Shown: piece after piece, positions 30,637 through 64,000 of the stretch
Layout of the letters: each line of letters opens with the position of its first letter
How positions within the stretch are numbered: position 1 is the first letter of the stretch
From: Melampsora larici-populina 98AG31
Taxonomy: Eukaryota; Basidiomycota; Pucciniomycetes; Pucciniales; Melampsoraceae
Reading direction: 5' to 3'
Length of the DNA stretch: 64,000 nt
Assembly (NCBI RefSeq): GCF_000204055.1
Contig: NW_006768769.1
Span: 2,015,488-2,079,487 of the forward strand
Position numbers and translations under genes: made by a program
Notes under the pieces: model-generated
Databases searched by the model: none
The model's input: the letters and a program-made list of their open reading frames with translations, nothing else
Told to the model about the DNA's origin: nothing

Positions 30637-30640
30637 AGAG

Positions 30641-31164: not shown

Positions 31165-31183
31165 AGAAAAACTAAAGAAAGAA

Positions 31184-40828: not shown

Positions 40829-41266
40829 CCTTCCTCTCCGTATTTCAGCATTGATATTTTTTTCTATTTTCTCCTTTGCCTGATAGGCTGACTTATGATT
40901 ATCTGGGCAATAAAACTTTAAGCCTCTTACTTTTGCGTTCTTTATGCCTTGGTCAAAGCCATACTGGAAACCTCAAATGATTTTCTGGTATTTCCTTTCA
41001 AGACCGTAAGTTTGAAGTTCCTTACGCCACCTACCAATGTCCATCTCACAAGTAGGTTTGGTTGGCCACCTTCTGCCCTTATTAAACCATTCCGAATCTG
41101 ACCAAAATTCTGGTATTGGTGTCATCAGCGGTTGGTGAATGTATGCCCTTGATGCGGACGGAGTGTCTTTCACTATCTGGTACGGGTCTGCCTCACTTTC
41201 ATCTATTTGTTCCTGGGTCACGGGCAAATAGGGTCTAGTCAAGGGCAAGGGGGAACTTAGGCACAT
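40829..41266 (-). pseudogene. E2 N-terminal part of RT polyprotein, broken by TGA
   Basis: Reads EADPYQIVKDTPSASRAYIH, then EMDIGRWRKELQTYG, a TGA at 40973-40975, and continues GFQYGFDQGI, FYCPDNHKSAYQAKEKIEK into the RT frame without a frame change. The stop aligns with Asp in E1 IDGF. Confidence 0.65.
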
Positions 41267-41383
41267 TGGGAACAGTTTTCAAGCATGTTAGTACAGCTTC
41301 TTCCATTCTCATTTATTTTTTGGAATTTGTCATGAGATTTCATTTCAAATAATTCCACACCAGACGTTCCAGACTCTAGTAGC

Positions 41384-43589
41384 TTACGCTTTCTTCCCTT
41401 TGACAGGGTTTCCGTGCTTGTCCCTCCTGTCCGGGCTCCTGCCTCTGTCTCTGTGACCTGCATATCTTTCTGAGTACCTGTCACTTGCGTAACGATCATC
41501 TTTCCTCCAATCGTTCCGTCTTCTCCCATTGTCGTTTTGGCCTTTGTAGTTGCCACCACCCCTTCCACCTTTCCCATTACCTTTGTATGAGCTCGTGGAC
41601 GCGTGGCGGTTCTCGGTTACGTTGTTTGATAAGGAGGTTGCAGAAGGTAAGTTGAACTTTGACTTGTTTGTCAAAGGGCATATGTTCGACTTTGGTTTCC
41701 CCGGAGCATAAGGATTTGTTTTGTAATGGCGCTCGTTGTAACTTTCAGCGGTTGTTTTTGCTTTGATTAACAGGGTCTCTTGAAGCTCGGCGTAATTACC
41801 AATAGATTTGTCGATTGTTTCGTGCATTACCCCTTGCCTTACCAGTCGGCAGTAGCGCAGGGCAACCATCCAACCGAAGTCCTTACGTAGTTTCTTCACC
41901 ACTGCTATGTGGCCTTCGAAGCGTTCTGCGACAGGTTTCCATCCGCATGTGATTAGGTGAGAACAGAACAGTTCCATACAATCGCTCCAAACTTCGAAAT
42001 CGATCGTAAGTTCTTCTACAGGCGCCTCTCCCCCATAGATTCGGGCCTCTCCTGACTCCTTCTTATCCGACTTTGTGGTTCTAGTTGACCATGCTTTTTG
42101 GTCTTTCACGAGCCACTCTTTGTCAAACACCGTGAGTTGGATATAGGAAGATAGTCCTTTCAGAATGATCGTTAGGCCTGGTGACAGCGGGGCTAAGGAT
42201 TCCGTCATTTGAGCGTTACCCCCCTTTAGGATTCTGCCGTTGTGAATGACGTCGCCATTAAGCATCTCTAAGGTTCCTTTTTTCGAAGACATGATTGCTA
42301 ACACCTTGTCTGACTCCTCTTTTGATGCAGCACCTTCGAACCAGGTCGCCTTATCTTCACCAACCTCGGTTGTCGAGTTTTGAGCAAGCCCAGAGGGTGC
42401 CTGATTCATGGTTCTGTCCTTGGTAACCTGATGATGGACCTCCGGCATTGGTTGTGGTATTGGTTGTTTGGGTACCACCTGCTTTACGAACGTTATTGAC
42501 GGGATGCTAGATCGTGAGGTCTTGGTGCCTTCTTCGTCCAAGACGTAAGGATTGTCCTTCTTTTCTGCGACGCTGATTTTGTCCAAGACTTTTAACAGGG
42601 TGTTTGCTTCTCCGTCGTCTCCACAATCATACGCATCTTGGATTAGCTTTCCTAGCGTTTTCCGTCTGGACTCTGTTAACGTCACACAGTGAACCGAACA
42701 ATCAACCGTCCAAAGAGTTAGTGTTGTCTCTTGTTGATCCTCTGGTCTACGACAAATGGAATCGGTATTATTATTATGGACGTGAACACCTATTGTAAGG
42801 CGGGTCATGGCTGGATCACTATTTGAAGCCGTGTCAGGCTGTTTTTTGGGACACCAATTGTAAGCCGGGCCTGGCTGGACCTTATTATGAGCCTGGTCAG
42901 GCGTGCGTCCATTTCCCGATGTTTTCCCGACTTCGTCACTATATTCAGCAGACTTTGGAAGAACAACAAAGGGTAATTCACTCTTTTTTCGCTCTTGTGC
43001 GTCTTTTTACCTGATATGTTGGCATAGACTGCACGAGAGCTGACTTGATCCTCCTTATAGATGAATATGAGATCATGTAAACTATGGATTCAGACAAGAT
43101 TGATGATGAAGCAAGAAGGGTTGGAGTGTATGGTATGGAAGGGGCGGACGTGTGTGACAGGATTGGGAGCAGGAGTAGATGAAGGTAAAGGTGTAACTGG
43201 GTATATGAAGAGAATCTCATTTCTGAATTTGCTAACTCACCATCTTGGTTTATTTCCTCTTCACTACCTTCCTCCTCTTCCATCCTTCCCTCACTGCTTT
43301 GCTCTCCTATACCCCCCCATTCCTCCTCTTCTTCTTTCTCTTCTCCTTCTGGTTCATTCCTGTTTTCTCGATCTCTTCTTCTCATATTCCTGGCGTCTCT
43401 AGTTCTTTTCAACCCTCTAGGACGACGAAAACCATTGGTAGGAGTCCTGCTCGCCAGCCTTCCATTAGCTCCTCTCTTTGGTGTTAAGAGGCGGTCCCCT
43501 GGCCTTATGCCTGTTGCCGCTGCATTTGCTCTTGTTAATCTTTGATTTAAGTTGTTTTCTGTTTGTTCGATTTGATTCATGAATGACAT
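41384..43589 (-). CDS. E2 gag-like protein, at least two exons
   Basis: A first exon 43589-43241 (SFMNQIEQTENNLNQRLTRA, then an Arg-rich and a Glu-rich run, donor GTGAGT) is the counterpart of E1 exon 1. The main part lies in 42808-41384; the conserved portion begins near ESRRKTLGKLIQDAYD (about 42670), where TTAACAG is a plausible acceptor. Conserved blocks: YIQLTVFDKEWLVKDQKA, LTIDFEVWSDCMELFCSHL, DFGWMVALRYCRLV. The end is a basic, Gly/Arg-rich RNA-binding tail (GKGGRGGGNYKGQ, RDRGRSPDRRD). No zinc knuckle is seen. Confidence 0.65.
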
Positions 43590-46500
43590 TCTTTCAGTTC
43601 CTTTCTTTTGATTTGAGAATTCTTCTTTTTTAGAACTTGTTGTCTTTGATTTGTCTACTTTGTCAATTGTAATTTAAATAATAAACAATCAGGCGAGAGA
43701 GAGTGTGAGCGTGAAAGAGATGGATAAAAGACCGTCTCAAGAGCGAAAAAGCAAGAGTAGAGGATTTCCTTTAGTGGAGGAAATTCGAGTGTACTTTGAG
43801 TCCACGTCTCATACTTTGCTTGTGACATGTGTAATCCATACCTGTCACCTCTTTTGTTCACGGCGTGTGGACACATTCACCAAAACGTGCCTTATTTGGT
43901 GCTTTCCAAGGTAAGCTAGAAAAAACATCCTTTGATAAACAAAAACAACTTTTTTGTTTCTTTGAAAAATGATCCAAAAAAAGAAGAACCAACCAACATC
44001 TCATTTATTTTGATTTTCAACAAACATAGCTGCATATGCAGCCTTTTCAATATCTTTAGACATGAAGAATGGGATTAGAAATATTGATGGAACATCTCTC
44101 ATCAGCGCTAGGAAAGCTAGTTCAATGCATGTGATGCCACCTCTTTTCTTAAATCCGTCTTCTAGTGTGTAATTGTAGGTGCAAAATGATACTGAAGTTG
44201 AAAATAGACAATCAGGTCAAATTTCTCAAAATGTTGTTGAAACCAGTCTGATCTTATCATCTCATCATCCTGAATTCCCATCTAATCATTCTATGGATCA
44301 ACTCCCACCGTGATCCTCCACCTGATCTTGAAACGTCTACATTTCTCTGATCTCCTAATCTTGTACAAGGTGAATTATTCACACTGTTATCTAACATATG
44401 TCTTCAATAATCTTTGAAACAATATTTGCCTCCTGTTACACATAAAATAAAAGGTAATGGCAACATGGCCACTTGAGGTGTGGCGGCTCCAAAGATGACC
44501 AATATAAGAAAATAGATGTTGCCTATGTTTTGAAATTGTTCAAAGAGATTCTATTAAAAATGAATTTAAAGATCAGTTTGACGGAAAAAGATGGTTTAGA
44601 TTTATAGTCAAGACGCAAGGAAATCATGTACCTTTGGTGAGAATGAGATGATTGTATATATTCAGTAGCTAATGGATCACCATTTCTATCAATCTGACCA
44701 GTAGATAAACCCAAGTTAACATAGATCAGTCTTATTTAATTCAAAAAAACAACAACTGCTCTTGGAGTTTGACTTATCAGATTTTGTTTTTTATTTTTTA
44801 AGACCAGTTGTAGGAGAATTGTCTAATTATTTTGAATCTTGGGTATGTTCATCTTTGCCTTAGTTATAGGAGGTAATGGAGGTAATTCAGTTTTTGAATA
44901 AGATTTTCTCATATGATTTGAATTAGCAGTTGGAGGTGTAAATTGTCTTCAAAGTCATTCACATATTCCTAATGGATCTTCACTTGATGATTGACCCAAG
45001 CTTTTTTTAGCTTTCCTTTTACAATAATCTTCCGAGATTGCTTTATGAATCTGTAGAGTATCCTTGAGTCGATTTGGGAAAAGTTTAAATTGATTTGGAA
45101 TCTGCAAGTTTAGCTGAAGGTGAAGGAGGCGATCAGCATTCTAGTACCTTTGAAGCCATACCAAGGGATGCGGTGATTTTCTCAAAATCATTGAAAAAGA
45201 GGAAAACTATGAGATAGTCAGACCTCAATGAGTGGGTTATTTTGAATCAAAGTTATAAATTTCTTTGACAAACCAAGTTTATGTATCCGTTGAGCACTTC
45301 AAAATCACCCATTACGTGTCATCCATTTCATCATTGTCATTGTCTCATCTTCACTCCTTGATCCAAATACATGAGGTATTTTGAGGGTAGTGTTTGCTGC
45401 GGGTACAGGTGGTAGACTTCAAATTCAATTTGAAAGTGTTGGAACATGTTGGTTTGAAGGGTTATTTGGATCTGGATCACTTGAATCAGATTGATTATCT
45501 AGGTTTAGTTGAGTGACTATGTACTGGTTGTGTAATAGGAATAATTGAAGCTCAGGCTTGAGAATTATTGGGATGACTGTTCAAGACGTACAGGATTGAG
45601 ACTATAAAGGGTTGATTGAAGGATGAGTGGGACAAAATGTCCTGCATGTGGTACTACATTATGGTTATGAAGAGTTACATATGTTGACATTTCCCCGCGT
45701 GGAACACCAAAGTTAAAATAGGCTTCTTAAAAGTTTCCTGAGCAGAATTGCTATTGAATGAGGAGTTCAGCTGGAGCTGAGAGCTCAAACATGGCCCAGC
45801 TCACTGATGAGATGTGCAACTAAGGACTGGCTAGGGATTGGACACACAAAAGCAGGTGGGATTGGAGACTTTTTGGGCACAATTGCAAGGCTTTCAACCC
45901 CCCTTGACGTTGAGGGGGGATCTGGCGGTCCTTGTGCTATATAACTACACCCACAGTGCTCAATTGTCATGTTTAAAACACACTCAGATTCAAAACAGAA
46001 GTGAGGCAGAACAAGAGCAAGTTCTCAATCTACCTACTTCAATTGTAGCATTTGAAGAGGACATTGCTGCCGTGGTTGCAGAATGAGGTGACAAGGAGTT
46101 TTGGACTTTAAAAGCAGCCTTGGGTGAGTTTCTCATATTACGTTGCTTTTGTACAAAGACATCATCTTACCAAGTTGCTTCTGCAGACAATACGGCCGGG
46201 GCACTCATCTAAGTCCGCATGGCAAAACAAAAGCTATACAAAGCTAAAGTGGGAATTCTGGAGGCACAAAAGCAATGAGAAAAGTACGGTCAAGGTATGT
46301 ATAATCTGGCTCATGCTCTCAAAATCGGAAATTCTATAGTCTTATTAAATCAATATAATTGGATTATTGTATTTCATGATGGGCAGGAACTTGCGCACAA
46401 CAAAGTTTGAAGCAATTAATGAGAAATAAACACAACCTATTCAAACAAAAGTTTGAATCATTCAAATGACAAGTGCCAAAACACAATTCTATTCAACCCC

Positions 46501-47785: not shown

Positions 47786-49038
47786 ATGTCTGATCTAAAT
47801 CCAGCCACCTATCGCGGAATGTACCTGTCTGGTAATTTTGAAATTGAAGAAAAGGTAGATCCTGTTTACGACATTTCCCCAGTACATTACCAACATTTTT
47901 ATGCCCTTCCGCAGGTATTGCCGGACAATGGTTGGCGATCGGAATACAGAACCTACACAATCTGTATTGGGTGTTGTGGCGCCGACCGTCAAAAGCCGTT
48001 GCTCTATGAAATAGTTGCCAAAGGTTCTAGCGGGGCCAAGTTCAAGTTGCTCCAAAACCATGTTTACTTCTTGCAAGGAGCCCTCTTCCCATCTAATTTG
48101 CCTGATACAAAGGCTGATCGGTTCATTTTTGAATGAAGCGATGTAGTTATGTTAGGCCCAAGTGAGAATTTTGAGGGTGATTTAGTTGATTTGGTAGGAG
48201 TGACTGGGTTGGGTATTGTAATCGCTATTGATTCAATTATCGAGGAATGTTGTCAGTACATGAAGAAAACACCAGATCAAGAGCCAGTTGCCACCACGGT
48301 TTTCACGGTCCCGCACGCTGATTATCATCCCATTGTAAGTTTTAATATGCTCATTGTTTACAGTGACTGGCTGGTACTCACTATTCAGTATTTCAGATGA
48401 AGACTGCTTGTACCAGCACTGTTGAATACAGAATTTGCCCAACTCCGAATCTTGTAAAGATTGCCGGCATTGTCAGGATTGGTCGTGAATGTCAATTTCA
48501 CGGATTTATCAAGGACTTCAACCAAGAAACCTCGTGTTACGTTGTTATTGTAAGCTGTTCCTGCCTGGCTCTCTCCCATATATTGTGACTTGTAGATTGA
48601 ACCAACAGGCCAACAAAGTCCACATGACCACCGGTTTTCAAGACATACCTTCCCAAAATGATACCGGGAACAATGATGGTGTTAATGTGCTCAAGAAACC
48701 AAAGAAGTAAGTGTAACGATAGCTCAATCATATACCTTGGCAAGCGCATCTGATATTGTCATGCCAGATTCAAGCCTAGGTCCACAACTTCAAGTATTCA
48801 GCCACCAATGACTCCTCAAGAAGGTATCAGCAGTGTTACATTTGGTTACACTGATAAATCATCTTTATTGTTGTCATCAAGCACAGGACACTCGGCCTCC
48901 ACATCCAAAACTTTGGTGGAAGAATTGTCGACCACAAACACTGACATTCCAGAACAAGTGCCCAAGAAACAAGCCCGTTATCAACCCAAGCGCAAGATTA
49001 CAAACCCCACCTACAAAGATACTTATGTCAAATCTTGA
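47786..49038 (+). pseudogene. Two-module accessory protein, copy F2 (one in-frame TGA)
   Basis: Same architecture as F1. Exon 1 47786-47854 (23 codons, ends LSGNFEIEEK), exon 2 47915-48334 (first module; YFLQGALFPSNLPDTKADRF, ends VPHADYHPI), exon 3 48397-48549, exactly 153 nt (VEYRICPTPNLVK, FHGFIKDF, CYVVI). Downstream, 48596-48706 and 48768-49038 give a basic Ser/Thr-rich tail (VPKKQARYQPKRKITN), though joining 48596 in frame meets a stop at 48661, so exon 4 is uncertain. A TGA at 48134-48136 breaks exon 2. Introns are 60-62 nt and phase 0 where determined. No Rep-helicase is adjacent. Confidence 0.7.
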
Positions 49039-49659
49039 TTGTATTTTTTCTTAATAATTGTTGGTCATAGGTATTGCACGCGGTTTGTCTCACGCTGACA
49101 ATAGTTATCCATTGCCTCTATCCATGAACTTTGTATAACTGCGGCTTTGAAAGTCCTATAACATATTGTCTCTTGGTATGATAGATGGCTCCCAATCTTT
49201 GTTACACTCCACCATTGATGCGCGCATTGCTGTTGTTTCATGAAGCCAAATTTATATATTCCCTCTATTATCATACAAGTTACTAATTGTTTGTCGGCCC
49301 TATGGCATGCTTTTCACTATTGTACGAGGTACTGGGTGGCCAGCCACCCTCTGGGATTGACCGGCCAGCCTCTGTACAGTACTGAACTGCAGTGAGTCAT
49401 TTGTAATGAGTCGCAGTGCGAGCAGTAACTGTGCATTCCACAGGAATAATGTATGTACCAGGCGGTAGCAGTGTTCAAACCTGAACCTGAGATAGAGGTC
49501 ATGTGGCTCTCAGCATTGACCAGGAGTACGGGGATGCAAATTGTTACACATATGATGTTGTGAACTACGGCAATGCAAGGTGTTACATATGAGATGTACA
49601 GGCGTGACGTTTTGTGAGTCGTGACAGATAAGTGTCACAAGAGTCAGATGCACCATGTA
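49039..49659. other. No gene recognised
   Basis: Contains a GGCCAGCCACC/GGCCAGCC repeat near 49336-49372 and several TTACACATAT/TTACATATG strings. No coding signal. Confidence 0.4.
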
Positions 49660-50687
49660 TGTGAGCCTACTAGCGTCTGTTAGGCTAGTAGAGTCAATGA
49701 AAATGTTGTAGAAGGTCTAATAACTTCTACTAAAGTTGTGTAGATCAAGATCTACAAGTATGAACGGGTAGAGACGTGGGCGTAAGAGCTTTACTTGAAA
49801 TAGACAAGTAAAGACTACAGTTAGTTGACCTTTAAACAAAGGCTTTAGCCCAGTGATTTTGGGTTAATTATTGTCTTTACAATAATTAAAAATAAGAGCA
49901 ACTGACGCGCAGTTCTCAATCCTAATTTGATCCTCTTCTTATTCAAAGAAAGGTCAAAGAAGGTGGTGTTAAAGTCTATTATAACACCGGGAACTTTACA
50001 CTCTGACTAATAGAGATTTCCCCGTAGATTTAGAGTTTCTTATATCAGATGAATCCCAAGTCTGATATCAGCAGTACCCAAGGACTACTTCCTTACAAGT
50101 AATTCCACCAAATGGATATTACAAGAACTACTGATTATGGGGTCTAATCAGAAACAAAGTTGAATGAGCACACAGAATAAGCAACAAGACACAAGGTTTG
50201 AGTTTCAAGGTTCGTAGAATCAGGCCTTTAAAGTTTGGTAATTGATAAGCAAAGTTTAAAGGTTCTAGGAAGATGAATAAAAGCAAAGTTGTGTGGTTGT
50301 TGAATAATAATGTGATGATGTGATTCCTCTCAATTTGGTTGGATTTCCAGGGTTTATATAGTCTGAACCTTGGAAATCTTTGGACTACAAGTGCGCACAA
50401 ATTGTGGTTCTATGGTTAGGTTTATTACAGTAAGACAGTTACTATTGGATTATAAGTATATTTCACTTGTTACATATGTGTTACGGCTGTGAAATATATG
50501 TAGCTTTGGTTTGCATCAAAGTTATGTATGTTCACACCATTTGATGTAAGTTCTGCACATGTTACATATGCTAAATCATATGTAACTTGACTCTTGAAAC
50601 TGAGCCTTGAGTTGTAATTGCTATTTTGAAGGTTTTTATTATAATACGTCGCCCATTGGTACTCTGGTTTAGTACTCAGGGCTGACA
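49660..50687 (-). mobile_element. Solo LTR, 1028 bp, reverse orientation
   Basis: On the + strand it reads TGTGAGCCTACTAG..GGGCTGACA and is flanked by the 5-bp duplication ATGTA (49655-49659 and 50688-50692). It is a close copy of the solo LTR inside E1 (29610-30636). It sits between accessory genes F2 and F3. Confidence 0.93.
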
Positions 50688-50715
50688 ATGTATATGGAGT
50701 GTACAAATTCAGAGC

Positions 50716-51632
50716 TTAGCTAGAGATAGGTGCCTCAGACCCGAAAGGCGAGATGTTCTTCACAACGACCTTTACGACCCATCTGCCGTTACTTCCATTC
50801 ATGCTCAACACAGTACCCCTCAGCAAAAGAAGTTGACCTGCAACTACTGAACCAGGTGTCCCGTCGAGACCTACAGCCTTTTCGTATATATAGTCAACTT
50901 CAAATTCTGAATACGTAAGATTCTGTATTGGCTCATCAACACTAAGAACGTCATGGGTTGGAAGACTGAAGCACCTACTTGCATATCCCATTCTCTATGC
51001 ATTACGGCAGCTACTCTCCATTTCTGTCCAGAGATGGCCAGACTGACCAGCGAGTCACTAAGAACCATTCCTCTGCCTAGCACGTTTAGGCCTGGGCTTG
51101 GACCCATTGATGTATCTGCCCAGTAAGCACCTACAGCTTCCTCGTGTTCAATTACCAGGCGCATTGATGGTTGGGACTGACCACGCACAACTACTCCATG
51201 TAAGTGGAGTTGTCCTGTAGGGTATTCGGCACCTGCAGTAACTTCTTGGACCAAGGTGACATTGACTGGGCCGTCGATCTGGTTCAGGACCACCGAGGCG
51301 TCATAGGTATTGCGCAGCCTCCCATTATGTCTCTGCGGAGTAATAGAAGATAAGTCAGCCGTTGTTCCGAGTAGGTCAAGGGCAGAGCCAGTACTAACAC
51401 AGTCTTGCACCATCAATGGACCGGCCCATTTCAGTGTGAGTTTAGTGTACGGACCTATACCTGCCAGGCGCATCCTCGTCGTGGCCTGCATTTCAGTACC
51501 TAGCGTTGTGAGTGGTTGGAGATTGAGATGTATTGTTTTATCTATAGCGTTGAAGCAAATTGAGTCGTGGGTCAATGTTTTTGAAGCGGCGTAGACGAAT
51601 ATGCGTTGCTCAGGGCAGATGATTAGGGACAC
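50716..51632 (-). CDS. Two-module accessory protein, copy F3
   Basis: Exon 2-type frame from about 51632 to 50979 (first module with LVQEVTAGAEYPTGQLHLHG, ending WRVAAVMHREWDMQ), a 56-nt phase-0 intron (GTAGGT..ATACAG), then 50922-50770, again exactly 153 nt (TYSEFEVDYIYEK, GQLLLLRGTVLSMN, GRWVVK). The frame then reads on to a stop at 50716. The first-module part is longer than in other copies. The start is unresolved: upstream, an LQKE-VSLI junction resembles the exon 1/exon 2 border EK|VSLA of F4 but with no intron, and no in-frame ATG precedes it. Confidence 0.62.
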
Positions 51633-51857
51633 CTCTTTTTGAAGCCGAAGGATATACGAACTGGGCCTGACTTCAGGCCTGATGCAACCATGTACACAGT
51701 AAGAACCCCAATCAGTAAACGTGTCCCCTGTCTGTCCCAGTCACGCCTGGCTTGCTAACTCTGGCACTAAGCATAAGAAGGCCATCCCAACCAAATGCAT
51801 CACAGTCGTCTCTTGGAGTTGCCACATTGCTCATCATCATATTATCTTCGCCACGAC

Positions 51858-52613
51858 ATGGAGCCGCCTTACTTACCAATTGGTTTTCAATCTGGACTGG
51901 TCCTTGGAGAAAAGGTCAGACTGAGCTCATTTTACTATGTCCCAACATGCGTTAACATGTATTGGCGTTAGGTCTCACTGGCTAGCACGTATCGGTTCTC
52001 TTTGGGCCACTTCAGTAGCGAGGTGTTTACCACATCCAATGGACTCGGAATGACTCCAATCACTGTCATAGAAACGTCGCCTGGGCAGCTGGAAGGCAAC
52101 TCGTGCTACTATGTGTACGGCCGTATCCTAGCAAGACGTTATCCAATGGGACCAGGATTCCATGCCGACAGGACTATTCCCATGACGTCCCGACCAGGCT
52201 CGCAGTTCCAAGCTGCCTCACAGGACTATGTACTTGTGACGAGCATTGGGAGAGTTCTCGAGTGCTACTTTTCGGATCAGAGGATGCGATGGGTTGTGAA
52301 AGTTTTGCATTGAGATTGGGACTCAGTTGTAAGTGACTTCAGTATCCTAGAATTCTCAAATGCTGACGTACTCCTCAGTCCCATAATGTATTGTCTTTGA
52401 ACGCGGAATACATATTGCGACAGGAGAGAATGGGAGAACTTGGCGTTGGGACTTTCGAGGTCGGTAGCATCCTCAGTTTCGATGGTCACCTCATTGGCTA
52501 TGCGGCCGGCAGTGACAAATGGACAATCAATGTAAGTAGCTAACTTCTAGGCATTTTTCACTGGGCTGACTTGAATTGCCCAGTTGACCGAAGCGCAACC
52601 GATCCAACCGTGA
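51858..52613 (+). pseudogene. Two-module accessory protein, copy F4 (one in-frame TGA)
   Basis: Exon 1 51858-51914 (MEPPYLPIGFQSGLVLGEK), intron to GCGTTAG, exon 2 51972-52328 (VSLASTYRFS, CYYVYGRILARRYP, ends MRWVVKVLH-DWDSV), exon 3 52379-52531, exactly 153 nt (LSLNAEYILRQERMGELG, ILSFDGHLIGYAAGSDKW), exon 4 52584-52613 (LTEAQPIQP, stop). All introns are phase 0. The only defect is the TGA at 52311-52313 in LH-DWD, where F3 has HREWD; a CGA codon would fit. Divergent from F3 with about 230 bp between them. Confidence 0.68.
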
Positions 52614-52863
52614 ACCGGGCTAGAAGAGATGTCAAATCGGACATGCAGAGTGTACTGTATCATTTTTTGGTCCTTTGCGGTCACTGCCGGTTGTCCTATC
52701 TGTTTTGGCCCGACCTCAGGCTGACCTGACAAATCTGTTTTGTATCGTACCGTTATTGATGGGTTCAGGCTATAGCCGGTCCAGACCACTGATACTAAGA
52801 AAATGATATGATACGCTACTTGTCTACTTGCAAGTCTGCTAGAGCTCGAGCGCCAGTCCCGCT

Positions 52864-53513
52864 ATGAGTCAGATCTCTTCTTCTGAGCGTATAAATGACG
52901 GAGTACTGTGTGGTAGGTCGCGGTCTACCTCTAACGGTACCAGCACTTTCTCAATCGATTATCACTTCACTCGCAGAATTACGGTTGAGATAACTACCAA
53001 ATCTTTATTACTGTTCAGACCCAGCTAGTGAGTATTGTTGCTTTACCAAAGCTGTTTCACACATGACTTGCGATGAAACTGTAGCTAATGATGTCACAGT
53101 CTTAATTAGACGCACGACAGGTCATGTCAAGCACCACAATGGAATACATTGAGTTTCAGTCGCGTGGCCGCCCTCACTTAAACCTTGTACGACATATTTC
53201 ACTGGGGACTGAACAAACAGGTCCGTCACATTGTGCACATCGTAAGTAGAATCTGTCATAATGTGGTTTTGCATCTGGACGTGTGCTAAATATTGGTGTT
53301 GCACTTCTGATCCTTTGTAATTGGCAGCGGATCATGTGGAAGTCTCAGTTGAGCACTTTGTTAGGGGTGGGGCTGCTGCTGTAGACGGTTCAGAGATCAA
53401 CACTTCTCAACCTGTGTCATAATCAGTACGGTATCTGGGCAATTCGAATGAGTTGTCCCAGTTCTGTACTGTGTGGCATACTCGATTTCAAGGATCAATC
53501 TACCTGGTTAATT
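52864..53513 (+). pseudogene. Probable eroded accessory-family copy F5
   Basis: A piece DHVEVSVEHFVRGGAAAVDG at about 53330-53390 and, in another frame, VLCGILDFKDQSTWLI followed by GTAATA at 53514 together resemble the 153-nt second-module exon of the other copies. An ATG at 52872 opens MSQISSSERINDGVLC, a possible first exon. Frames are broken. Called only because of position within the cluster and the module-end pattern. Confidence 0.35.
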
Positions 53514-53679
53514 GTAATACGGGCCAGTGTGCCACCCGCACCCAGAACTACCATTATGAGATGAAGTGTAGAGACAACTCTTTGGTACGGCTGACTTGAA
53601 TTCAGTACTGCGTGGCCTTCTTATAAAGCGCCGGCACGCTTCTGCTTTATTCTAGCGCCGTGTTGTAACAACGGGGCGT

Positions 53680-54450
53680 CTACACTGTAATGATGCTAGA
53701 AACCTGAGTGAAATTATAATGTCAAGTCAGAGTCTGGATGCGCTGAAGCCAATCCGGAACTTACAATGACCACCCACTGATGTACATCTTGAGCATACTG
53801 CATGAGCGTTCCCTTGCATTCAACAGTTAAACTTTCCGGACTGTCACGATTGGCCAGACCTGAGATTAACCCAGTATTGTCAACGTATTTCACATGGAAG
53901 TCTACGAAACGCCCGAACTTTACGGAGCTGTCAGTCTATGACATAAGTCAGGCAGCAGTTTGTAATCTTCACGTACCCCTCGACCCACGCATTGTGGGTA
54001 ACCGTCAGGATCCACCAGCCCCTTAAATTGGGCTCTTTGTGTAGCGGTTGACAGAAGTGAATTCTGCCACGACCGACAACATGAACTTGATCCACTGTGA
54101 TACCCAACGCACGCAAAGCTAAAGGCTCAGCCATGCCCAGGACCTCCGTATTGACCATTGTAGCGCCACTCGGACCCAGGGACACAACCAGTCCGGAGAA
54201 AGTCACAACGGAACCTTTGTCCAGGGCCTCGGGTGATCTCGTGATTAAGCAAAAGGGAGAGTAGCGACTTTGAATGAATGGGTGGACGGCGGACACATCG
54301 TATTGTACGCCCGGGCCACCACCAAAGACAGTGACGGATGTCTGCATAACAAATCAGACACATATTCACTGGAAAAATTGTTATGCTTACTGGGTTATGT
54401 ACTCGTACAGTGGCATTCCACTCCAAGGGCATAGATTCCTGATTGTCCAT
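53680..54450 (-). CDS. Two-module accessory protein, copy F6, intact (about 207 aa)
   Basis: Exon 1 54450-54391 (MDNQESMPLEWNATVRVHNP), intron GTAAGC..ATGCAG, exon 2 54341-53973 (SVTVFGGGPGVQYDVSA, SPEALDKGSVVTFSGLVVSL, ends WWILTVTHNAWVEGY), intron, exon 3 53935-53765 (VDFHVKYVDNTG, LTVECKGTLMQYAQD, HQWVVI), intron GTAAGT..CTCAG, exon 4 53703-53680 (VSSIITV, stop). All junctions are phase 0 and there is no stop. Exon 3 is 171 nt with this acceptor; the AAG 18 bases further on would give exactly 153 nt as in the other copies. No signal peptide or membrane segment. Function unknown; two compact beta-rich modules are suggested by the alternating hydrophobic pattern. Confidence 0.68.
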
Positions 54451-54699
54451 TTGCTCTGAGCGTAAGCTATGTATTGATAGGTAATTGATGTGTGAAATAG
54501 TGAAGCCTACTTGGTACGTCAACCGGCTTGAAGCGGCTCTGGTATTCAATTCAAGCAGAAATTGACACAATTCATGTCTCTTCAAGAAGAACCTGACCGG
54601 GTGCCATGCGTTAAAATGTGATTGTTCACGATTTGCTAAGCTCAATTGGGCAATTACTGAATGGTAAAATCTTGGTCATTGGTCATCCTCGGTAATGTG

Positions 54700-55120
54700 T
54701 GTCCTTCAGAGGGACACAGACGGACCGTTACGATGAGCTGAATTGTATGCATTGACGGCCTTGACGTGTCTGCGCATGACTAAATCTAAGTGCAGGGCTC
54801 CATTGTGAATGTGAGGGATGTTGGGTTGGTTGAGTAAGTCATGCCTTTGCGGTCGCCAAGCGTACTGTAGTGTATGGACAGGGCACATTCACATGCACGC
54901 GTTGAATGGTTCTCATAGGGATTGATGAAGAATACGGCGATTTTGTATGCGCCTGAATGTGATGGAGTGAATTGCAAAAGACTACACGGGAGACGCTTCA
55001 TTTGAGTCGCAATGCACAGAAGATTAGAAAATTCTTTATGTCAGGAAAGTCAAATAGAGGCTGGAACCGTGTATATTAGAAGTGGCTTCTATTTGACTTG
55101 TCAGAGCCCTGGACGTTGAC
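54700..55120. other. Intergenic, small hairpin at 55045-55100
   Basis: AAGTCAAATAGAGGC and its inverse GCTTCTATTTGACTT lie about 30 bp apart just before gene F7. Open stretches on the - strand (54888-54706 and 55001-54786) overlap in different frames and match nothing. Confidence 0.4.
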
Positions 55121-55131
55121 CATTTCGAAAG

Positions 55132-55977
55132 ATGTCTCTTGTACCCAACTCAATCCCTACGAATGTGTCAGATAATGCTCGCTTGCCCATAAACTGGAGC
55201 GGTGTATTCAAGTTAAACACCGAGGTACGTTCAAGGTACTTGTATATGACATCGTGCTGATAGCTATTGGAATTAGTGTTTGCGACTGTCCAGCGGTGGA
55301 GGTATTCGAGAGTGTTTCCAAAGTACGGTTGTGCTTCTAGTCGGTCGCCGTCCCCATTTACGTTTCTTCGTATCTACCAATCCGAACGTGCCTACCTTGG
55401 AGGCAAATCAATCCTACAGACTTGTTGGTGAAATGCTAGGAAGAAGTAACCGTCACGATACAGTCCTCTCACCCCTGGCTGGTGGGGTAATCCGACTTGA
55501 AGAGTATGAGGCTCAACTACCACAGCCTCTACCAGTCATCACGGTGGCAAGCCGTGGCCACATCATGCGGTGCGTTAGGCGCAGGGTTGTTGGTCAGGAC
55601 TACGAGCGTTGGGTCATTACCGCGATGCATAACGGGTGGGACGACAGTGTAAGCAATTCCGCCTGTAGTCCACCAAACCGATGCTGAACCCTTTTCAGTT
55701 GGGTAGCGTGGCACATTTTCTTGTTTTGTATGAGGCTTCCCTAAAACTGTTCAACTCCATCGGCGTCAATAATCTCAGTACGGGCAACATCGTGAATTTC
55801 AGCGGAGTGGTGATCAATTACTCACCAGTTGGTAGGGCATGGGTTGTAGAGGTAAGCAGTAATCTGCTTACAATCGGGATTGATGCTGACTAATAACAGC
55901 TTAGAGCGGTAGATCATATTGTTACGGCCCGACCAGATGTGTCTGCTTGGAAGCGGAGAGCATCTGCTAGCACTTGA
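55132..55977 (+). CDS. Two-module accessory protein, copy F7, intact (about 231 aa)
   Basis: Exon 1 55132-55224 (SLVPNSIPTNVSDN, ends SGVFKLNTE, comparable to F1 SVFKVSET), exon 2 55277-55648 (HLRFFVSTNPNVPTLEANQ, SYRLVGEMLGRSN, ends YERWVITAMHNGWDDS), exon 3 55699-55851, exactly 153 nt (HFLVLYEASLK, LSTGNIVNFSGVVINY, AWVVE), exon 4 55900-55977 (short basic tail WKRRASAST). Introns are 52, 50 and 48 nt, all phase 0, with GT..AG borders. No in-frame stop. It lies nearest the 3' side of the - strand Helitron helicase and points toward it. Function unknown; family relation from shared exon structure and module-end pattern. Confidence 0.72.
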
Positions 55978-56386
55978 GATGATTGCCCGAGTCAGGGTCT
56001 CATCATCAAGTTTGGGTTGGACTATCTGTACAGAGGGTAAATGATAAAGGAAAGCTGGTAGTGGCCTCAGTTTGGAATAAGTTTCATTAGATCTAACGGG
56101 ACAGTACAGTTAATTACAATTAGTTACAATGTTCATGTAGTTGTGCCAAAGTTTCATAGATTTGAAGGGAGTTTGCGTTGCGGTGTGGTACAGATGGTTA
56201 CACCTTCAATGAAAATTCCGGAAACAGGCCGGCCTTGACGGCTCTCAATGCAAGAAATATATAGTGAGATAATGTGCTGCAAAAAACTGCGACGCCCAAC
56301 CCTGTGTGAGATGTGAAATGAAGAAATGAGGTAAGCTGGAGCAGGGCACGGCAAGTATCGGTACATATGGTGCTTACGCTGAAACA
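55978..56386. other. 3' flank of the second Helitron gene
   Basis: Should contain the Helitron 3' end on the - strand if the element is short, but I could not identify a CTRR end with a preceding hairpin. The convergent end of F7 is at the left edge. Confidence 0.35.
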
Positions 56387-59300
56387 CTAAACAATGGCTT
56401 CCTTGGACACCACATTAAGAGTGGTTGAATGGTTTGAACTAGCCAAAGAAACAATTGTCTCCTCCGCAGACGTACACCTAGACAGCCCGACATATAGTTG
56501 CCCATGAGCAAAAACTGGCGTTGGAAGCACCAAACATACTTTGTTGACTGTTTGACCCTGGGCTTTGTTTATAGTCATTGCGTAAGCCAGAGCCACAGGG
56601 AATTGAAGGCGGTAAAAAGAGATCGGAACATGTTGATCACCTGGGTGTTGCAACTTAATGCGAGGTAGAAAGACGTCCGAGCCGCGCTTGGGGCCAGTAA
56701 TGATCAGGCATTGCAAAGCATTGTCAGTAGTACCTAGTATTAACATGCGGGTTCCATTGCACAGGCCGCGTTTTAGATGCAAATTGCGCAGTAGGACTAC
56801 CACCAATCCAGCTTTGAGCTTGAGGTCATGTTGTGGGAAGCTGGCCATGTTGAAAGTGTTAAGAATGTCCACGCTCACTTGTTCAGCCCAGTCTTTGGTA
56901 AGAGCATCGACTGATTTATACTGTTTAACCAACCCGTTTTGAGCTGCCAGGACATGTTGATTGATCTTGCTGACGGTCTTGTTCAGAGGTGTTATAATGA
57001 CGCGTTCTGCGTAAAATCGAGCGAGAGCAGCCCATGCTTGGTTGGAGAATAGAGAGGCGGAACCCGCGTAGAAATTATTGACTACTTTCTTGTCAAATGA
57101 AGCGTTCTCGTTGAAATGTGTTACTTCAACATACCGCAGTTTGAGTTCTGCGACTGGAGCATCTTGAAGTGCTCCGTCACCAACCTGTAGCAACCAGTTA
57201 GCAAATCCCCGAGTGTTGGTATGAGTAGCTTGGTCCATGTCAGCGCGGCGCAGTCTCATATTGATTGTGAGTTTGAACTGTACTACGCTCTCCCACAAAT
57301 ACGAGTTCTTGATGCACGCTCTGACTGCGTCTTGTAACGACCCGGATTTTACCACTGGCGATATTTGTCGGAAATCGCCAGAAAAGAGCACCGTTACCCC
57401 ACCAAATGGTTCGTCTGAGTCGCGTAGGTCCCTCATTGATCGGTCTACACATTCTATTGAGTCCTTGTTCATCATAGAAATCTCGTCCCATACCAAGAAC
57501 TTAATGTGGCTGAGCAATTTGCCTGTGGCGTCCGATCTTGTAAAGTTGCATGTGGAACCGGGGTCAGCTTGGAGCGGTATTTTCAGGATTGAATGAGCTG
57601 TCCCGCCATGTAGCAGGAGTAACGCTGCAATGCCGGAAGACGCCACCGAGGCGAATGGGATATTATTGGTATTGCAATAATTGAGGCACGTATTAAGCAA
57701 GTAAGTTTTCCCGGACCCACCTGGTCCATCAACAAAGAGAAAACTTCCTACATTCGATTCAGTTGAGTATTGGATTAGATCAAAAATTTCGTGCTGTTCT
57801 GGAGTGAGGCTAGAGATCGATTGCAAGAGCAATTCCTGGGACATGGTTGGCTCTTCAATACTATCCTTGTCAGTGGTCCCGCCGCCAATTTCAAACAGTA
57901 ATTGGAGGTTGACGTCGAACAGGCCGACTTCCTCAAGAGTTTTACCCATGCCCATCACGGAACTTTCTAGAAGCGACAGTCCATAATTGTGCAGCTGAGA
58001 AATGGTTGGTCAAATGAGAGGCGCCACGAGCCCTAGTTGGTATTCACAGTCATCGCAGAGATCCAAAATGTGTTCTTCCCAAAGACGAACAGGGTTGGCA
58101 GGAGGGCTGTGGACCAGTATAAGAGCAAACATCTCCCAAAGCTGCTTGCCGGTTTTCCACGTGGCCGCCTCTGATAAACAAGCATCGAAATGGGTATCGG
58201 ATAGAAGCAACCCAAGACTATCCGCAGCACTTCGATAGGTTCTATGAAGCACCCCATTGACCGTCCTCAGGCTGAGGAATGAGGTGGGTCCTTTAACTGC
58301 TGTCAACAGAAGTCGTAGATAATAGCGTTCGCCGTGGCTAGGCATTGCGAAATGTAAGCGACTAACTGCAATGGTGTTGTTAACTCGTCTAAGCCTTTCC
58401 GGCTTGGACCACCAATAGTACGTGGGCATGTCGGCATATAGTAGTGAACGGACAGGAATCTTTGTTTTGGGTATTAAACCACCCTGACTGCATACGGCGA
58501 AAAATTCGGTAAGGGTAGAGCGCTGAGCTGAGCCTGAATCCATCTGGTGCCGGAGGGTATCTGTGTTGTGAAAGTAAACGGTGTGGGAATTTTCTAGATG
58601 CAACATGAGTCGAGTTATTGATGGGTAACGCCCGGAGAGAGAATATTTATACAGCCGCCATATTGCTACAATACAAAGTCAGCATCGTATAGAGTTCGTT
58701 TTCGCGGGTGGGAACTTACCTTCAGGGGAAGCCAGAGTCCTTCTGTCGACAAAGTCATTTGGTTCGTTTTCAACTTCTAAACTGACCGTGCTTCGGTCGT
58801 GTCCCTTACTGATGTATTTGTACAAGTATTTGATAGATTTCATCCCCAGTGTAACTTCAACGTTGATGTGACATTGGAATTTAAGAAGGAGAAAGGGGTT
58901 GTAAGGTACGACGTCGCGATTAGTGTATTTGTAGCCATTTTTCATGAAATATCAGCCATCGTCAGGTCTCTTATAACTTGGATATGCATCCTCGGTGATG
59001 GCCGTTTCGGAGTTGAATTCCTTAGGATAACCGTACTTGCATCTATGTCCATTCCAACAAGCCTTGCCTTCGGCACAAGGTCCATGGAGCATGAAATTTG
59101 TGACATGCGCGTAGAGATCTGGAGATGCTTCAGGATCAGGGAGAACAGCCCAAACTGCCAAGTCAACTGCAGCAGGGGTCTTCGGAGTTGAAGAGGCATC
59201 GTTGATCATGACGGTATGGTCATGAGGGTTTCCCCGCTTCTGGAATTCGACGGTGTGGACGTATGAGATGTTGCTGCCCAGTCTGGAACGTTCGAAGAGA

Positions 59301-61614
59301 TCTTCATGAAGCTCTTGAAGCTTGAGTTGAAACACACGGGCAACCAGGTCCGGCCTGTCGTCCGATGTTTGTCCAGGTAGCAACGCGGCGGTGATCTCAG
59401 GCCACTTGGGATTAGCTGTCATTGTAACGAAGAAACTTGGGGGGCCATAAACTTTGACCAAAGCCATAGCATTGTGATAAAGCTCATGCATAGCTCTGGG
59501 ACCGCCAATAAATGTACACTACAAGAAATATAATATTTTCTGGGCAGAAAATTAAATTATTGATACACAAAAATATTGAGAGGCCAGGAGAAGGGCAAAA
59601 AATAAATAAAAATATGCATCTTGTTCCCTGCGGTGAGAGCTTCACTCTCCATATTTTTCCGTATTTTTACAGTCCATATTGATAAGTGTACTAACAATAA
59701 ACCTTCACAATCATCCAATTACAACCTGTAACAAGCACTGAAATTTGGCTCATTAGTGTTTAGAGAAACTTTTGATTTCTGAAAATACTCATAAATTTTT
59801 CAATTCCGGTCCAAAACGCTCGATTTTGGGTGCATTGGTAAGCTGGAATTGTCCTCCACATAGTTCATAAGAGGACCACACAGCATGCTGGTCTTCTAAA
59901 AAAGATATCATCTTTTTTATACATTTGTACATCCAGATCCATAGAATGATTGTCATACTAGCTACATAGTTCTTGATCTTATGAAAGTTCGAGGTGAAGA
60001 GTTCAGCTTTCTAATGCACTTGAAATTGAGTGTTTTGAGGCAGATTTCACAAAGTTATAGGTGTTTTCAGAAATCAAAAGTTTCTTTAGACACTAATGAG
60101 CCAAATTTCAGTGCTTGTTACAGGTTGTAATTGGATGATTATGAAGGTTTATTGTTAGTACACTTATCAATACAGACTGTAAAAATATGGAAAAATATGG
60201 AGAGTGAAGCTCTCACCGCAGGGAACAAGATGCATATTTTTATTTATTTTTTGCCCTTCTCCTGGCCTATCAATATTTTTGTGTATCAATAATTTAATTT
60301 TCTGCCCAGAAAATATTATATTTTGTGTAGTGGTAGAAGGAAGAATGATTCGCTTTCCAACAGTAGCATTGTTGTTGTTGAGCGCTTCAGCAGCGCCGTT
60401 GTAAAGCGCTGCACGAATTTTCTTCTGATTGTTCTTATAATACTTCATGCGCGCATTTTCAACGCACACATACATGTCGACTATGTACTCCTGGAGAAGC
60501 CTACCACCTCGCAATATGGGGGAAAAAACTCCAGCTCGACTGAACAAAGTGAAAGCTGCCCACTCCAGATTAGATACTTTTCCGCTTTTGCCTGCAGGAG
60601 AAGGAATGTCAGAACCATACGATGTTTACGTTCAAGGGAGACTCACGCCGTTCATTCAAATGTCGGTAGTGTTCATCCCAACCATGGGACCCGAACATGA
60701 AAAATATTGGATAACGTAGCGAGAAATAATTTGTATTAAGATCGCAGATTCTCCTAAGTGGGCCATCTCGCCGTCTAAGGATAATATCACGATCTTCAGA
60801 TCCAATACTGCCATCACCTTGTATTACAGCTGCAACCTCACTGCATGTTGGGTAGTTGTAACGATTCGGGTCACGGCCGGATATTGGCATTGATTTGATT
60901 TTGATGGTTCTGACGATGGCACTGTCCAAGATTTCTTCGGCTGATTTGTACAACTTGGCGAATGGGTTGTGGCGGTAGAGGAAGTCTTGAAGAGTCTTGA
61001 TGATTGCAGGTTCCAATCCACCACCGGCACGCGAGTTGCGATCTGCAGCTTCTTCGTCGCCCTGATCGCCGTACATGAAAATTTGTGCAAACTTTCTAGG
61101 TATACCAGGAGTTGGGAGGAGTGAGCCGATACGGTGGGTAAGTCGTCCTTTAATCTTATATGTCCAAGAACCACCGTTACCCGCTACGCTCACGTCCTGC
61201 TTCGTACCAGTGGAAGCAAAGGAGAGAGCATTGTTGTATCGGCGTATATCTTGCCGGAATGCTTTGGAAACTGGGTAGCAAGGGTCAGCGAGATTGAAGA
61301 GAGAAATGAGAGAACGTGGACTAACCTCTGTCCTGATTAGACAACAGCTGCTTTAGAAACTCTGGTGTTAATTCATTCTCACGGTCGGTGCTGGGAAGTT
61401 TAACCGCCCCTTGCTGGCAACATGCAGCGTAGACAGCAGTGGCGGCAGTTTTGGTACCTGGTTGGCGTTCTAACTGCCAATGCAACGCCCCGCAGTAGGA
61501 GCAGGGGTCATCGCATGTGCCAATGTCGTACGGTATCTCTGCGGCGAAGCGGTGCTTAATAGAGACCTCAGTATTTTCGGAGGAGGTAGAGACAGCGGGA
61601 CCGTGGTTAACCAT
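56387..61614 (-). pseudogene. Helitron Rep-helicase, nearly complete, split by a CACTA-type element
   Basis: Pieces on the - strand: N-terminal region 61614-61330 (PCSYCGALHWQLER), after an intron the N domain 61270-60630 (GSWTYKIKGRLTHRIGSLLP, MFGSHGWDEHYRHLN), after an intron 60597-60333 (LEWAAFTLFSRAGVFSP, VGKRIILPST), then beyond the inserted element 59516-58952 (TFIGGPRAMHELYHN; HUH-like PHDH in FQKRGNPHDHTVMI), 58945-58735 (YLYKYISKGHD with the two Tyr), linker 58665-58010, and helicase 57958-56387 (GPGGSGKTYLLNT, VWDEIS, LFSGDFRQ, ALAYAMTINKAQGQT, YVGLSRC). In-frame TGA at 58952-58954 and 58010-58012; otherwise frames are open. Rep nicks and joins single strands in rolling-circle-type transposition. 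Confidence 0.92.
59517..60332. mobile_element. CACTA-type nonautonomous element with about 270-nt arms
   Basis: Starts CACTACAAGAAATATAATAT and ends TTTGTGTAGTG, with the 3-bp duplication GTA at 59514-59516 and 60333-60335. The two arms are near-perfect inverse copies over about 270 nt (TTTTCTGGGCAGAAAA, AGAGGCCAGGAGAAGGGCAA, GAGAGCTTCACTCTCCATAT all recur), leaving a centre of about 270 bp. Taking out the element and one GTA restores the Rep frame across ILPS-TFIGG. A fragment of the same family is at 11370-11631. Confidence 0.9.
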
Positions 61615-62756
61615 TGGACCAATTAGGTATTAAAGTGCAAAGTTCAAGGAAAGACTGATAGCAGTCCATACGGGCATGTCAGAAATGTGATCAGATGGAG
61701 AGGCTGGCAATTCAAGGAGGAAGGGATTAATAATAACGCACCTGTTCAAGGAGAACTGTTGACTACAACATGGAATGAGGGATTATAACGGTCAACGTTT
61801 ATTTCAGGATCAGTCAGATATGTACTTCAAACGAACCTTTCTGCAGCTCAGTTATTCGAAGTGGACCGAGGGATATTGTTGTAGTTAATGTAATGGAAGA
61901 GTAATTAGAGAGACCGGAGGCCAAGTAAAATTGGAATTCTGACGTAGGATAACCTGTTAAGAAACGACGACGTAATTGCTTGGTGATGATAAGTTCAAGA
62001 AATTGGCGGGGGGTGCCTTTTATGGATATCTGAGCGTCTACGCCATGTTGCTATGCCCGGCGAAAATTAATGCTGGACAAGATCAAAACAGTTTAACTAA
62101 TCGTTGTGCTGGAGAATTGATTGACCTGGAAATAAAAGATTCTTCCATCGTAACTGGCTGGGTCAGATATGCTGATGGACTCAGCAGAGATCACCGTTGG
62201 GCGACGCTGAAATGCGCGCTAGGTTGAGTTGGGCCAAATGGTAGCTGGCTTTCGCCAAAAGTTGGTTAAACTGGGCCGAATTGAAAGCTACACCCGACGT
62301 GGGCGATGTACTGGAGGAACGGAGACAGGCCCAGATTCGGTGGCGTATTACCACCTGATGTGGCATCAAGCGCGATTTTGCTGATAATGAGATGTTTTGC
62401 ATTGGATGAGTGTGGGTTTGCTGAATTGACAGGTTGCGTTGGAGAAGACTCCACGGCCATTACTTTGTAGAAGTATTATAAGGTTAACTGCGCAGGCCGG
62501 CAAATAAGGCGCTAGTGCGTTTGGTGTTGTGTGTATGAGGAAGAAAAGTTGTGCTCAAAAGGATGCGAGTTATATTGACACTATATAAGGTAACGGTCTC
62601 TATTTGACATAGTAAAAACAGGCGTAAATGAAAAGTACAAGTAAGTGTGGAGGAATGGATACACAGGGAGATTATGATACAAATGCTGACGCAAAGTGAA
62701 GCCGCAGAGGCTGTACAAGTTCGGAAAGTACCAATGTGAAAAAGCCCTTGTAGGTA
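61615..62756. other. Spacer between F8 and the Rep-helicase gene
   Basis: Includes an open stretch at 61976-62227 (+) with AGELIDLEIKDSSIVTGWVR and HRWATLK, which resembles the second module of the accessory family and could be a decayed copy. The rest shows no gene. Confidence 0.35.
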
Positions 62757-64000
62757 TCATTCCTCCACATCTTCGTCAGTGTCGGCCTCGATGAGTTCGC
62801 TAGGCTCTTCAGGACACTCAGATTCAACTTCGGTGGCCTTAGCTGGTGCCTTGCCTTTCTTAGACTTGGAAGCAGGAGTCTTCTTGGGGGCTGACTTCTT
62901 TGTTACGGGTGGAACAGGGGAAACGGGCCATTCTTCGTCGGAAATGTTTTCCTCGTCCTGTGCGGCGGTGCTAACTTGCGGTGGCAGGGCTGCAGAAGTC
63001 TTACCTTTACCTTTCGGAGGCAACCTTGACGCCTTTGCAGGAGTGACTGCGGGTTTGGGAACATGCCTAATGTTTTTGATTAGCCTGGATAGTATAATCA
63101 GAGGAATAAAGGCTCACTTGGCTGGACGAGCACGGCGTGCAGGTAAGGAGGGAGACTTGAGTGGAACCTCTTCGGAAGCGAGTTTTCGCTTGGCGGAAGG
63201 GGTCGAACTGGGACCGGCGACGGCATTAGTTGGGGTGTTAGGGCTAGGTATGTGCCTGAACGGGATTGTTAGCTCCTTCATGAGGCGTCGTAGCGAGCAG
63301 AAGTGCGACTTACTTTGCCGGGCGAACACGACCAGCAGGTGTAACAGAACCAGCGGGATCGATCTTCTTGCCGGAGGTTCCTTCGTTACCCGTGCATGGA
63401 CTGACGCCAGTGACCTGTGAGAGAATTGTCAGTTCCATGATGAGGAATTTTTTTTTGATGAACACGTACTTCGACTACCCAGCGGCTATGCTCGGTTTCC
63501 CAGTCGACAATGAACCCGTTGATGAGAGTCTCACGACCTAGTTGAACAATGTTCTGACTCTTCTCCATATTGCGAGTGGGTCGGATACGGTATTCGATTT
63601 CAAAGTACTGATTTTTACGGAGCTGGAGAAGAAGTGTCAGTTATATTGAGCTGCACTATGGTTCAGGACGTACACACCTGTGGTTGGTAGTCAACGTGTT
63701 TCATTACAAAACATAGGGTCGATTTGCTATCATCTTCGTCAGGGATATTCCAGCAACTGGATACCACCCCCAGACCCGAGATCGCGGTATTATTATGAAG
63801 GACGCCCGTAAATGTTTCGCTTGTACCAACAAAGATCTTGTGGTTGGCCTCGTAATACATGTTGAAGTCAGCAGACTCCTTTTGAGGCAAAAAACAGGCC
63901 TTCATGACGTAGCATTCTCCTTCGTGTTGAACTTCAATGGCAGAACAGTAGGCTGTGATTTACCGTCGTATTCTCTGTTGTTGTCGTCGTTCCATCCATT
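62757..64000 (-). pseudogene. Two-module accessory protein, copy F8, runs off the window
   Basis: Reads on the - strand from the right edge. Exon 2 part 64000-63678 (NGWNDDNNREYDG, then after an apparent one-base frame change YCSAIEVQHEGECYVMKACF, YYEANHKIFVGTSETFTG, ends KHVDYQPQ), exon 3 63622-63470, exactly 153 nt (FEIEYRIRPTRNMEKS, INGFIVDWETEHSRWVVE), then 63414-63315 (GTSGKKIDPAGSVTPAGRVR), 63255-63118 (STPSAKRKLASEEV) and 63066-62757, a Lys/Pro-rich tail (KKSAPKKTPASKSKKGK) ending in an acidic stretch. Clearly orthologous to F1 (shared TPxGRVRPA and HVP exon starts). It sits 5' of the Rep-helicase on the same strand. The frame change near 63950 is the only defect seen. Confidence 0.75.

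What the first reader, a model, noticed from the sequence alone, without database searches (positions are those of the whole stretch)
47786..64000. A gene family with an invariant 153-nt exon: eight copies in one window
F1, F2, F3, F4, F7 and F8 each contain a second-module exon of exactly 153 nt, flanked by phase-0 introns where both borders are clear (the donor after the F3 exon is non-standard); F6 gives 171 nt, or 153 nt if the acceptor 18 bases downstream is used. The exon encodes a shared pattern (hydrophobic-x-V/E-Y near the start, a G-x-hydrophobic turn in the middle, R/W-W-V-V-E/K/I at the end), and the preceding exon always ends near H-x-x-W/Y/D. Overall identity is low, so exon structure is better conserved than sequence. 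I know of no described family with this architecture; RPA-like OB folds encoded by some Helitrons are the nearest idea.
Basis: partly seen in the sequence, partly recalled or inferred. Interest (0 to 1): 0.9.

Follow-up and report, generated by a model that had tools for sequence, protein, structure and literature searches.

The report
Helitron carrying five SSB-like genes
The repeated gene family belongs to one rolling-circle transposon (a Helitron) in the poplar rust fungus: beside its Rep-helicase it carries five related genes for proteins that look like single-stranded-DNA-binding proteins, which would suit a transposon thought to move through single-stranded DNA.

The parts
49325..64000 (-). 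Helitron, as far as the window holds it: 3' end at 49325; its 5' end was not found in the window and the sequence after 64000 reads N. This copy is decayed
   Evidence: 3' terminus shared with two relatives and then diverging; gene order shared with the relatives; N stretch; broken frames
49325..49349 (-). 3' terminus: hairpin GGGTGGC-TG-GCCACCC, AGTAC, CTCG, followed by host T
   Evidence: 27 such ends in the genome with up to 2 mismatches, 0 in the reversed control
63470..63959 (-).
   Evidence: deposited protein MELLADRAFT_60363 = P0014, whose model skips the 153-nt exon
62760..63414 (-). Tail exons of gene A (63313-63414, 63117-63254, 62760-63065), rich in K, P and A, the last with an acidic end
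   Evidence: borders as in the deposited model except at the start of the last
56387..61629 (-). RepHel gene in several pieces: Rep (Helitron_like_N) and PIF1 helicase, interrupted by a foldback insert and an in-frame TGA at 58952-58954
   Evidence: Pfam PF14214 E 1.4e-35 in 58952-59518 and PF05970 E 7.7e-68 in 56387-58009; relatives; stop
59517..60332 (.). Foldback (inverted-repeat) insert inside RepHel; not part of the original element
   Evidence: pair I2; absent at this point in both relatives
55132..55974 (+). Gene B (F7): 55132-55224, 55277-55648, 153-nt exon 55699-55851, 55900-55974
   Evidence: deposited model MELLADRAFT_103265 = P0016, which has the same 153-nt exon
53765..54450 (-). 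Gene C: 54394-54450, 53976-54341, 153-nt exon 53765-53917
51858..52531 (+). Gene D (F3): 51858-51914, 51972-52310 with an in-frame TGA at 52311-52313, 153-nt exon 52379-52531
50770..51440 (-). Gene E (F2): first exon about 51402-51440, 50979-51308, 153-nt exon 50770-50922
   Evidence: the first exon is set by likeness to the C51 copy only
49660..50688 (.). Repeat of about 1 kb between gene E and the 3' end; inverted copy of 29609-30636, which lies beside a retroelement with recombinase-like frames (by eye)
   Evidence: pairs I1 (97%) and I3 (94%); frames
47786..49038 (+). F1: orphan A-type copy outside this Helitron; in-frame TGA at 48134-48136; pieces 48137-48334, 153-nt exon 48397-48549 and a low-complexity tail
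   Evidence: nearest Rep is 11.4 kb away on the other strand

Best explanation
The 153-nt-exon genes are accessory genes of a Helitron. Shown: in this genome a Helitron lineage of about 14 kb carries RepHel plus five related genes (A upstream on the RepHel strand; B, C, D, E between RepHel and the 3' end, in alternating orientation), and one such unit moved as one piece. Predicted: in the best model (gene A, second module) the domain is an OB barrel of the SSB/PriB kind, split by an intron between strands 2 and 3, so that the 153-nt exon codes for strand 3, helix and strands 4-5; its length stays fixed because the barrel tolerates few insertions there (inferred). Inferred mechanism: Rep nicks the element and the PIF1-type helicase peels off one strand; the OB proteins coat this strand, protect it and help Rep and helicase to reach the 3' hairpin. 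Five diverged paralogues suggest division of labour, for example different subunits of one complex or different steps. The window copy is decayed and would not do this itself.
Against: No ssDNA binding, expression or transposition was measured. In the window copy gene A is frame-broken, gene D and RepHel have in-frame stops, and RepHel holds an insert. Overall model confidence is low (mean pLDDT 55, pTM 0.49) and the first module is unresolved; an earlier model was worse (41.7). B-E were not folded. Leaving out each class in turn, the exon profile finds E, D and C (E 7e-5, 8e-4, 7e-3) but not B (0.1) or A (2.1; only 7 training sequences). No Pfam, NCBIfam, PHROGs or PDB sequence match supports OB/SSB. 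57 of 139 Rep loci have no A gene found within 10 kb upstream, so A is not needed by every Helitron here or was missed. 7 of 18 B-like loci near a Rep lie on another side or strand. The sites matching the joined C51 flanks carry T, not A, at the left border; no such site was found for C26.
Confidence: 0.8

Rival explanations
1. The genes are host genes captured by a Helitron and carried as passengers with no role in transposition.
For: Helitrons are known to capture gene pieces; in fungi captured genes can lengthen them to 14 kb (PMC6431247, passages). In the window two copies have stops and a third is frame-broken, and 57 of 139 Rep loci have no A found.
Against: The genes show purifying selection between elements, occur at fixed places beside RepHel in many diverged elements, and the two database searches that worked returned no named protein from outside Melampsora.
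Confidence: 0.1
2. The OB-fold proteins bind something other than ssDNA: they act as anti-silencing, RNA-binding or protein-binding factors that help the element evade the host.
For: OB folds bind many ligands; in the structure lists editosome OB proteins (RNA editing) and AspRS also appear. Other transposons of rust fungi carry TET/JBP genes proposed to counter methylation (PMC12730594, passages).
Against: The nearest folds shown are SSB and PriB, ssDNA-binding proteins of replication, and Helitrons are thought to move through single-stranded DNA (PMC4067079, passages).
Confidence: 0.15
3. They are true, very diverged RPA70 genes of the kind carried by plant and some animal Helitrons.
For: Same place in the biology: plant, fish and cnidarian Helitrons and Helentrons carry RPA-like ORFs (PMC4683698, PMC4067079, PMC6431247; passages). 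Two modules in tandem recall the paired DNA-binding domains of RPA70 (recalled).
Against: No RPA family matches at E up to 1, and the structural matches shown are led by SSB/PriB, though absence of RPA from that list proves nothing.
Confidence: 0.12
4. The shared 153-nt exon is a chance pattern picked out by eye.
For: Open AG|153|GT stretches are as common as those of other lengths.
Against: 0 of 5,000 in each of three controls; present in the deposited model of F7 and of several relatives and in 23 of 25 A-type loci read.
Confidence: 0.01

Closest known systems
Plant Helitrons with RPA-like genes (e.g. the Mothra group, PMC4683698, passages)
   Same: Helitron with a separate gene for an ssDNA-binding-type protein beside RepHel; several plant Helitrons carry one or more such genes (PMC5148889, section 6)
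   Different: Plant genes are homologous to RPA; these are found by no RPA model, their modelled member folds nearest SSB/PriB, they share a 153-nt exon and come as five diverged, alternately oriented genes in one element; host is a rust fungus
Helentrons with RPA ORFs (PMC4067079, passages)
   Same: Rolling-circle transposon with an accessory ssDNA-binding ORF
   Different: Helentron RPA matches RPA1 DBD-A/B models and the elements carry an endonuclease domain; here the ends are Helitron1-like, and no endonuclease was among the Pfam hits of the five RepHel pieces scanned
HELPO1/HELPO2 of Pleurotus and FoHelis of Fusarium (PMC4289320, passages; PMC5148889, passages and section 6)
   Same: Fungal Helitrons; HELPO2 ends in CTTG, like the C26 relative here
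   Different: The first reports no RPA domain in the RepHel ORF and the second no RPA-like genes; FoHeli3 has one extra ORF of unknown domain
TET/JBP-carrying Helitrons of rust fungi (PMC12730594, passages)
   Same: Rust-fungus Helitron1 elements with an accessory gene
   Different: Accessory gene is a dioxygenase, reported in Puccinia graminis
Bacterial and mitochondrial SSB, PriB
   Different: No detectable sequence similarity (5-15% identity in the structural alignments; no Pfam hit)

Membership tests
Helitron | RepHel: HUH Rep domain and PIF1-type helicase | tested here: met
   PF14214 E 1.4e-35, PF05970 E 7.7e-68 in the window element; this copy's frame has a stop and an insert
Helitron | 5' end TC | tested here: met
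   TCTATA at 8 of 8 group-1 relatives read, preceded by A in 7; the window element's own 5' end is not held
Helitron | 3' hairpin a few bases before a CT-type end (CTRR; CTTG in HELPO2) | tested here: met
   7-bp stem, AGTAC, then CTCG (window, C51) or CTTG (C26): CTYG, not the literal CTRR
Helitron | Insertion without target-site duplication, between A and T | tested here: met
   C51 element: gapless match of joined flanks at two unoccupied sites; flanked by A and T, but those sites have T instead of A; not shown for C26
RPA70 / plant Helitron RPA | Sequence match to RPA DNA-binding domain families | tested here: not met
   no RPA family among Pfam hits at E up to 1 for 6 deposited proteins and for window pieces of A, C, D and E, or up to 10 for 8 aligned A proteins and window pieces of F1, A, B and E
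SSB / PriB | OB fold with SSB-like topology | tested here: met
SSB / PriB | Sequence match to SSB families | tested here: not met
SSB / PriB | ssDNA binding | not testable with these tools
   needs purified protein

The most novel reading that the evidence does not exclude
A Helitron lineage that carries its own single-strand-binding machinery, built not from RPA but from an otherwise unknown SSB/PriB-like OB family, multiplied into five specialised paralogues (A-E) that may form a hetero-oligomeric complex on the transposon's displaced strand.
Probability: 0.4. Interest if true: 0.75.

Novelty: new variant of a known kind. Interest (0 to 1): 0.6.

Why it matters
How a Helitron handles the single strand it peels off is not settled, and in the papers seen here accessory ssDNA-binding genes appear only as RPA-like genes in plants and animals. 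A fungal lineage that carries five paralogues of a different OB family would suggest that such a function was acquired more than once and can be elaborated, and it gives compact proteins for direct tests of ssDNA coating and of contact with RepHel. It also explains about a hundred loci of the poplar rust genome, several deposited as 'uncharacterized protein', as transposon genes, which matters for gene counts and for lists of lineage-specific genes.

Tried and rejected
Pfam, NCBIfam, PHROGs and PDB sequence searches gave nothing convincing. The two database searches that worked returned 18 proteins, 17 named as Melampsora and one unnamed, P0009; sensitivity is limited to shared 5-residue words, so relatives elsewhere are not excluded. 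RPA chains do not appear among the 50 structural rows shown, which is no evidence against kinship. dN/dS over most A pairs was unusable: 2 of 190 pairs had dS between 0.05 and 1. No unoccupied target site was found for C26. Looking for eight copies: a profile gave six in range. In one search I entered 93 of the 149 rows, leaving out exon-2 and tail rows beside entered ones. Literature: the searches, judged by their listings and by passages of eight papers, showed no report of SSB or OB genes in rust Helitrons; Repbase reports and subscription papers were not searched.
Full report
What the window is. The window is G000:C5:2015488-2079487 of a 98.3-Mb genome. Database proteins from contigs of the same lengths are named Melampsora larici-populina 98AG31, the poplar leaf rust. 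The stated region holds a Helitron on the minus strand: Rep and PIF1 helicase between 56387 and 61629.

The observation. Six exons of exactly 153 nt, open in phase 0, lie in the region. Aligned without gaps they score 305 against -748 (sd 58) in shuffles; 0 of 5,000 shuffles, slid registers or random open exons reach it. Y11 and G36 are invariant, G29 and W48 are in five of six. Length alone is not enriched (27 such stretches against 14-35 at the other lengths from 120 to 156). A profile of the exon finds six copies in the region plus one at 5.7-6.5 kb, not eight. The exon can be read at 153 nt in 23 of 25 A-type loci, F8 among them (the script looked for 153 among several possible border pairs), and is present in the deposited model of F7 (P0016), while the deposited model of F8 (P0014) skips it.

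Linkage to Helitrons. A search of the genome with F8 gave 135 exon matches, 91 loci after merging; Pfam PF14214 gave 147 matches, 139 Rep loci. 74 of the 91 lie within 10 kb of a Rep; all 74 are on its strand and 73 are upstream of it; 2.8% of random points would lie within 10 kb of a Rep. Adding a second query gives 106 loci, 83 of them upstream on the same strand, serving 82 of 139 Rep loci. Searches with F7, C, E and D found 20, 10, 11 and 16 loci after merging. For B, C, D and E in turn, 18, 9, 16 and 10 lie within 22 kb of a Rep, and 11, 8, 14 and 9 on the side and strand seen in the window. Six cassettes hold A, RepHel, B, C, D and E complete in one order and orientation, the window among them; four more lack one detectable gene. 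Other Helitrons here have A alone, or A with one convergent downstream copy, and a few show other arrangements.

Ends and movement. The window element's 3' end at 49325 (minus strand) is a 7-bp hairpin, five bases, then CTCG before a host T; it is shared with C51 and C26 (where it reads CTTG) up to that point and then diverges. With up to two mismatches the genome holds 27 such ends and none of the reversed control; 13 lie within 25 kb of a Rep, all 13 downstream on its strand. In seven cassettes the end lies 295-496 bp beyond the last match to gene E; in the window it is 1,421 bp, with a 1-kb repeat between. The 5' end of relatives is TCTATA in eight of eight of one group, preceded by A in seven. 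The C51 element is 13,845 bp and the C26 element 14,580 bp, the latter with a foldback insert. The joined flanks of C51 match two unoccupied paralogous sites without any gap across the join: 94 of 108 and 92 of 115 bases. In C51 the six genes therefore moved as one unit. No unoccupied site was found for C26.

State of the window copy. It is decayed: gene A is frame-broken near 63960 compared with C51, gene D has a TGA at 52311-52313, RepHel has a TGA at 58952-58954 and a foldback insert at 59517-60332, and a 1-kb repeat lies before the 3' end.

Selection. Between L012 and L013, and L017 and L018, dN/dS is 0.14 and 0.21, the only 2 of 190 A pairs with dS between 0.05 and 1; window B exon 2 against C51 gives 0.19 at dS 1.5. 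In six further B-E stretches dS is saturated while pN is 0.23-0.45, and pN is 0.075 for a RepHel stretch. The proteins were kept while these elements diverged.

Reading. Helitrons are thought to move through single-stranded or circular intermediates, with the 3' hairpin as terminator (PMC4067079 and PMC4778049, passages). RPA-like accessory genes are reported for plants, fish, cnidarians and Helentrons (PMC4683698, PMC4067079, PMC6431247; passages), and were not found in Pleurotus or Fusarium Helitrons (PMC4289320, passages; PMC5148889, passages and section 6). A survey of rust transposons names Helitrons in two passages without accessory genes (PMC12210899). The best reading is that this rust lineage uses its own SSB-like OB family for that role, multiplied to five genes. 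The location, order, ends, unit movement (for C51) and selection are shown; the OB fold is predicted for A; the binding and the division of labour are inferred. I file the element as a Helitron and do not file the proteins as RPA or SSB family members.

Limits. No expression data; the database searches reach only close relatives; counts of loci are lower bounds; the window element's 5' end is not held.

Noticed in passing
window 5736-6475 (+) with 8268-8801 and 9826-10947 (+): A decayed second Helitron: A-type copy with stops, Rep and PIF1-like pieces in the usual order (the PIF1 piece by eye).
   Followed up: partly
window 28185-33326 (+) and 38055-43673 (-): Two retroelements with RT-like and recombinase-like frames (by eye); a 1-kb repeat beside the first (29609-30636) has an inverted copy inside the Helitron at 49660-50688.
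   Followed up: no
window 59517-60332 and 11446-11632; L056 188-1009: One foldback repeat family sits in RepHel of the window element and, at a different point, in RepHel of the C26 element: independent insertions.
   Followed up: partly
window 47786-49038 and C5:2088819-2094762 (L010): F1 is an A-type copy without its Rep; a plus-strand Helitron Rep lies about 24 kb downstream, and the window Helitron plus a retroelement fill most of the gap, so F1 may be its partner split by nested insertions. Untested.
   Followed up: no
window 63470-63622; P0014, P0010, P0004, P0005, P0008: Deposited gene models skip or shift the borders of the 153-nt exon in several copies; being phase 0 on both sides, it can be skipped without a frameshift.
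   Followed up: partly
L022, L025, L026, L032: Four A-type copies would use a GC donor after the 153-nt exon.
   Followed up: no
C112, C14, C26:52793, C84 Rep loci: Other Helitron lineages show one weakly D-like gene 3.7-4.8 kb downstream of Rep on the opposite strand, so a convergent OB gene may be older than the five-gene array.
   Followed up: no
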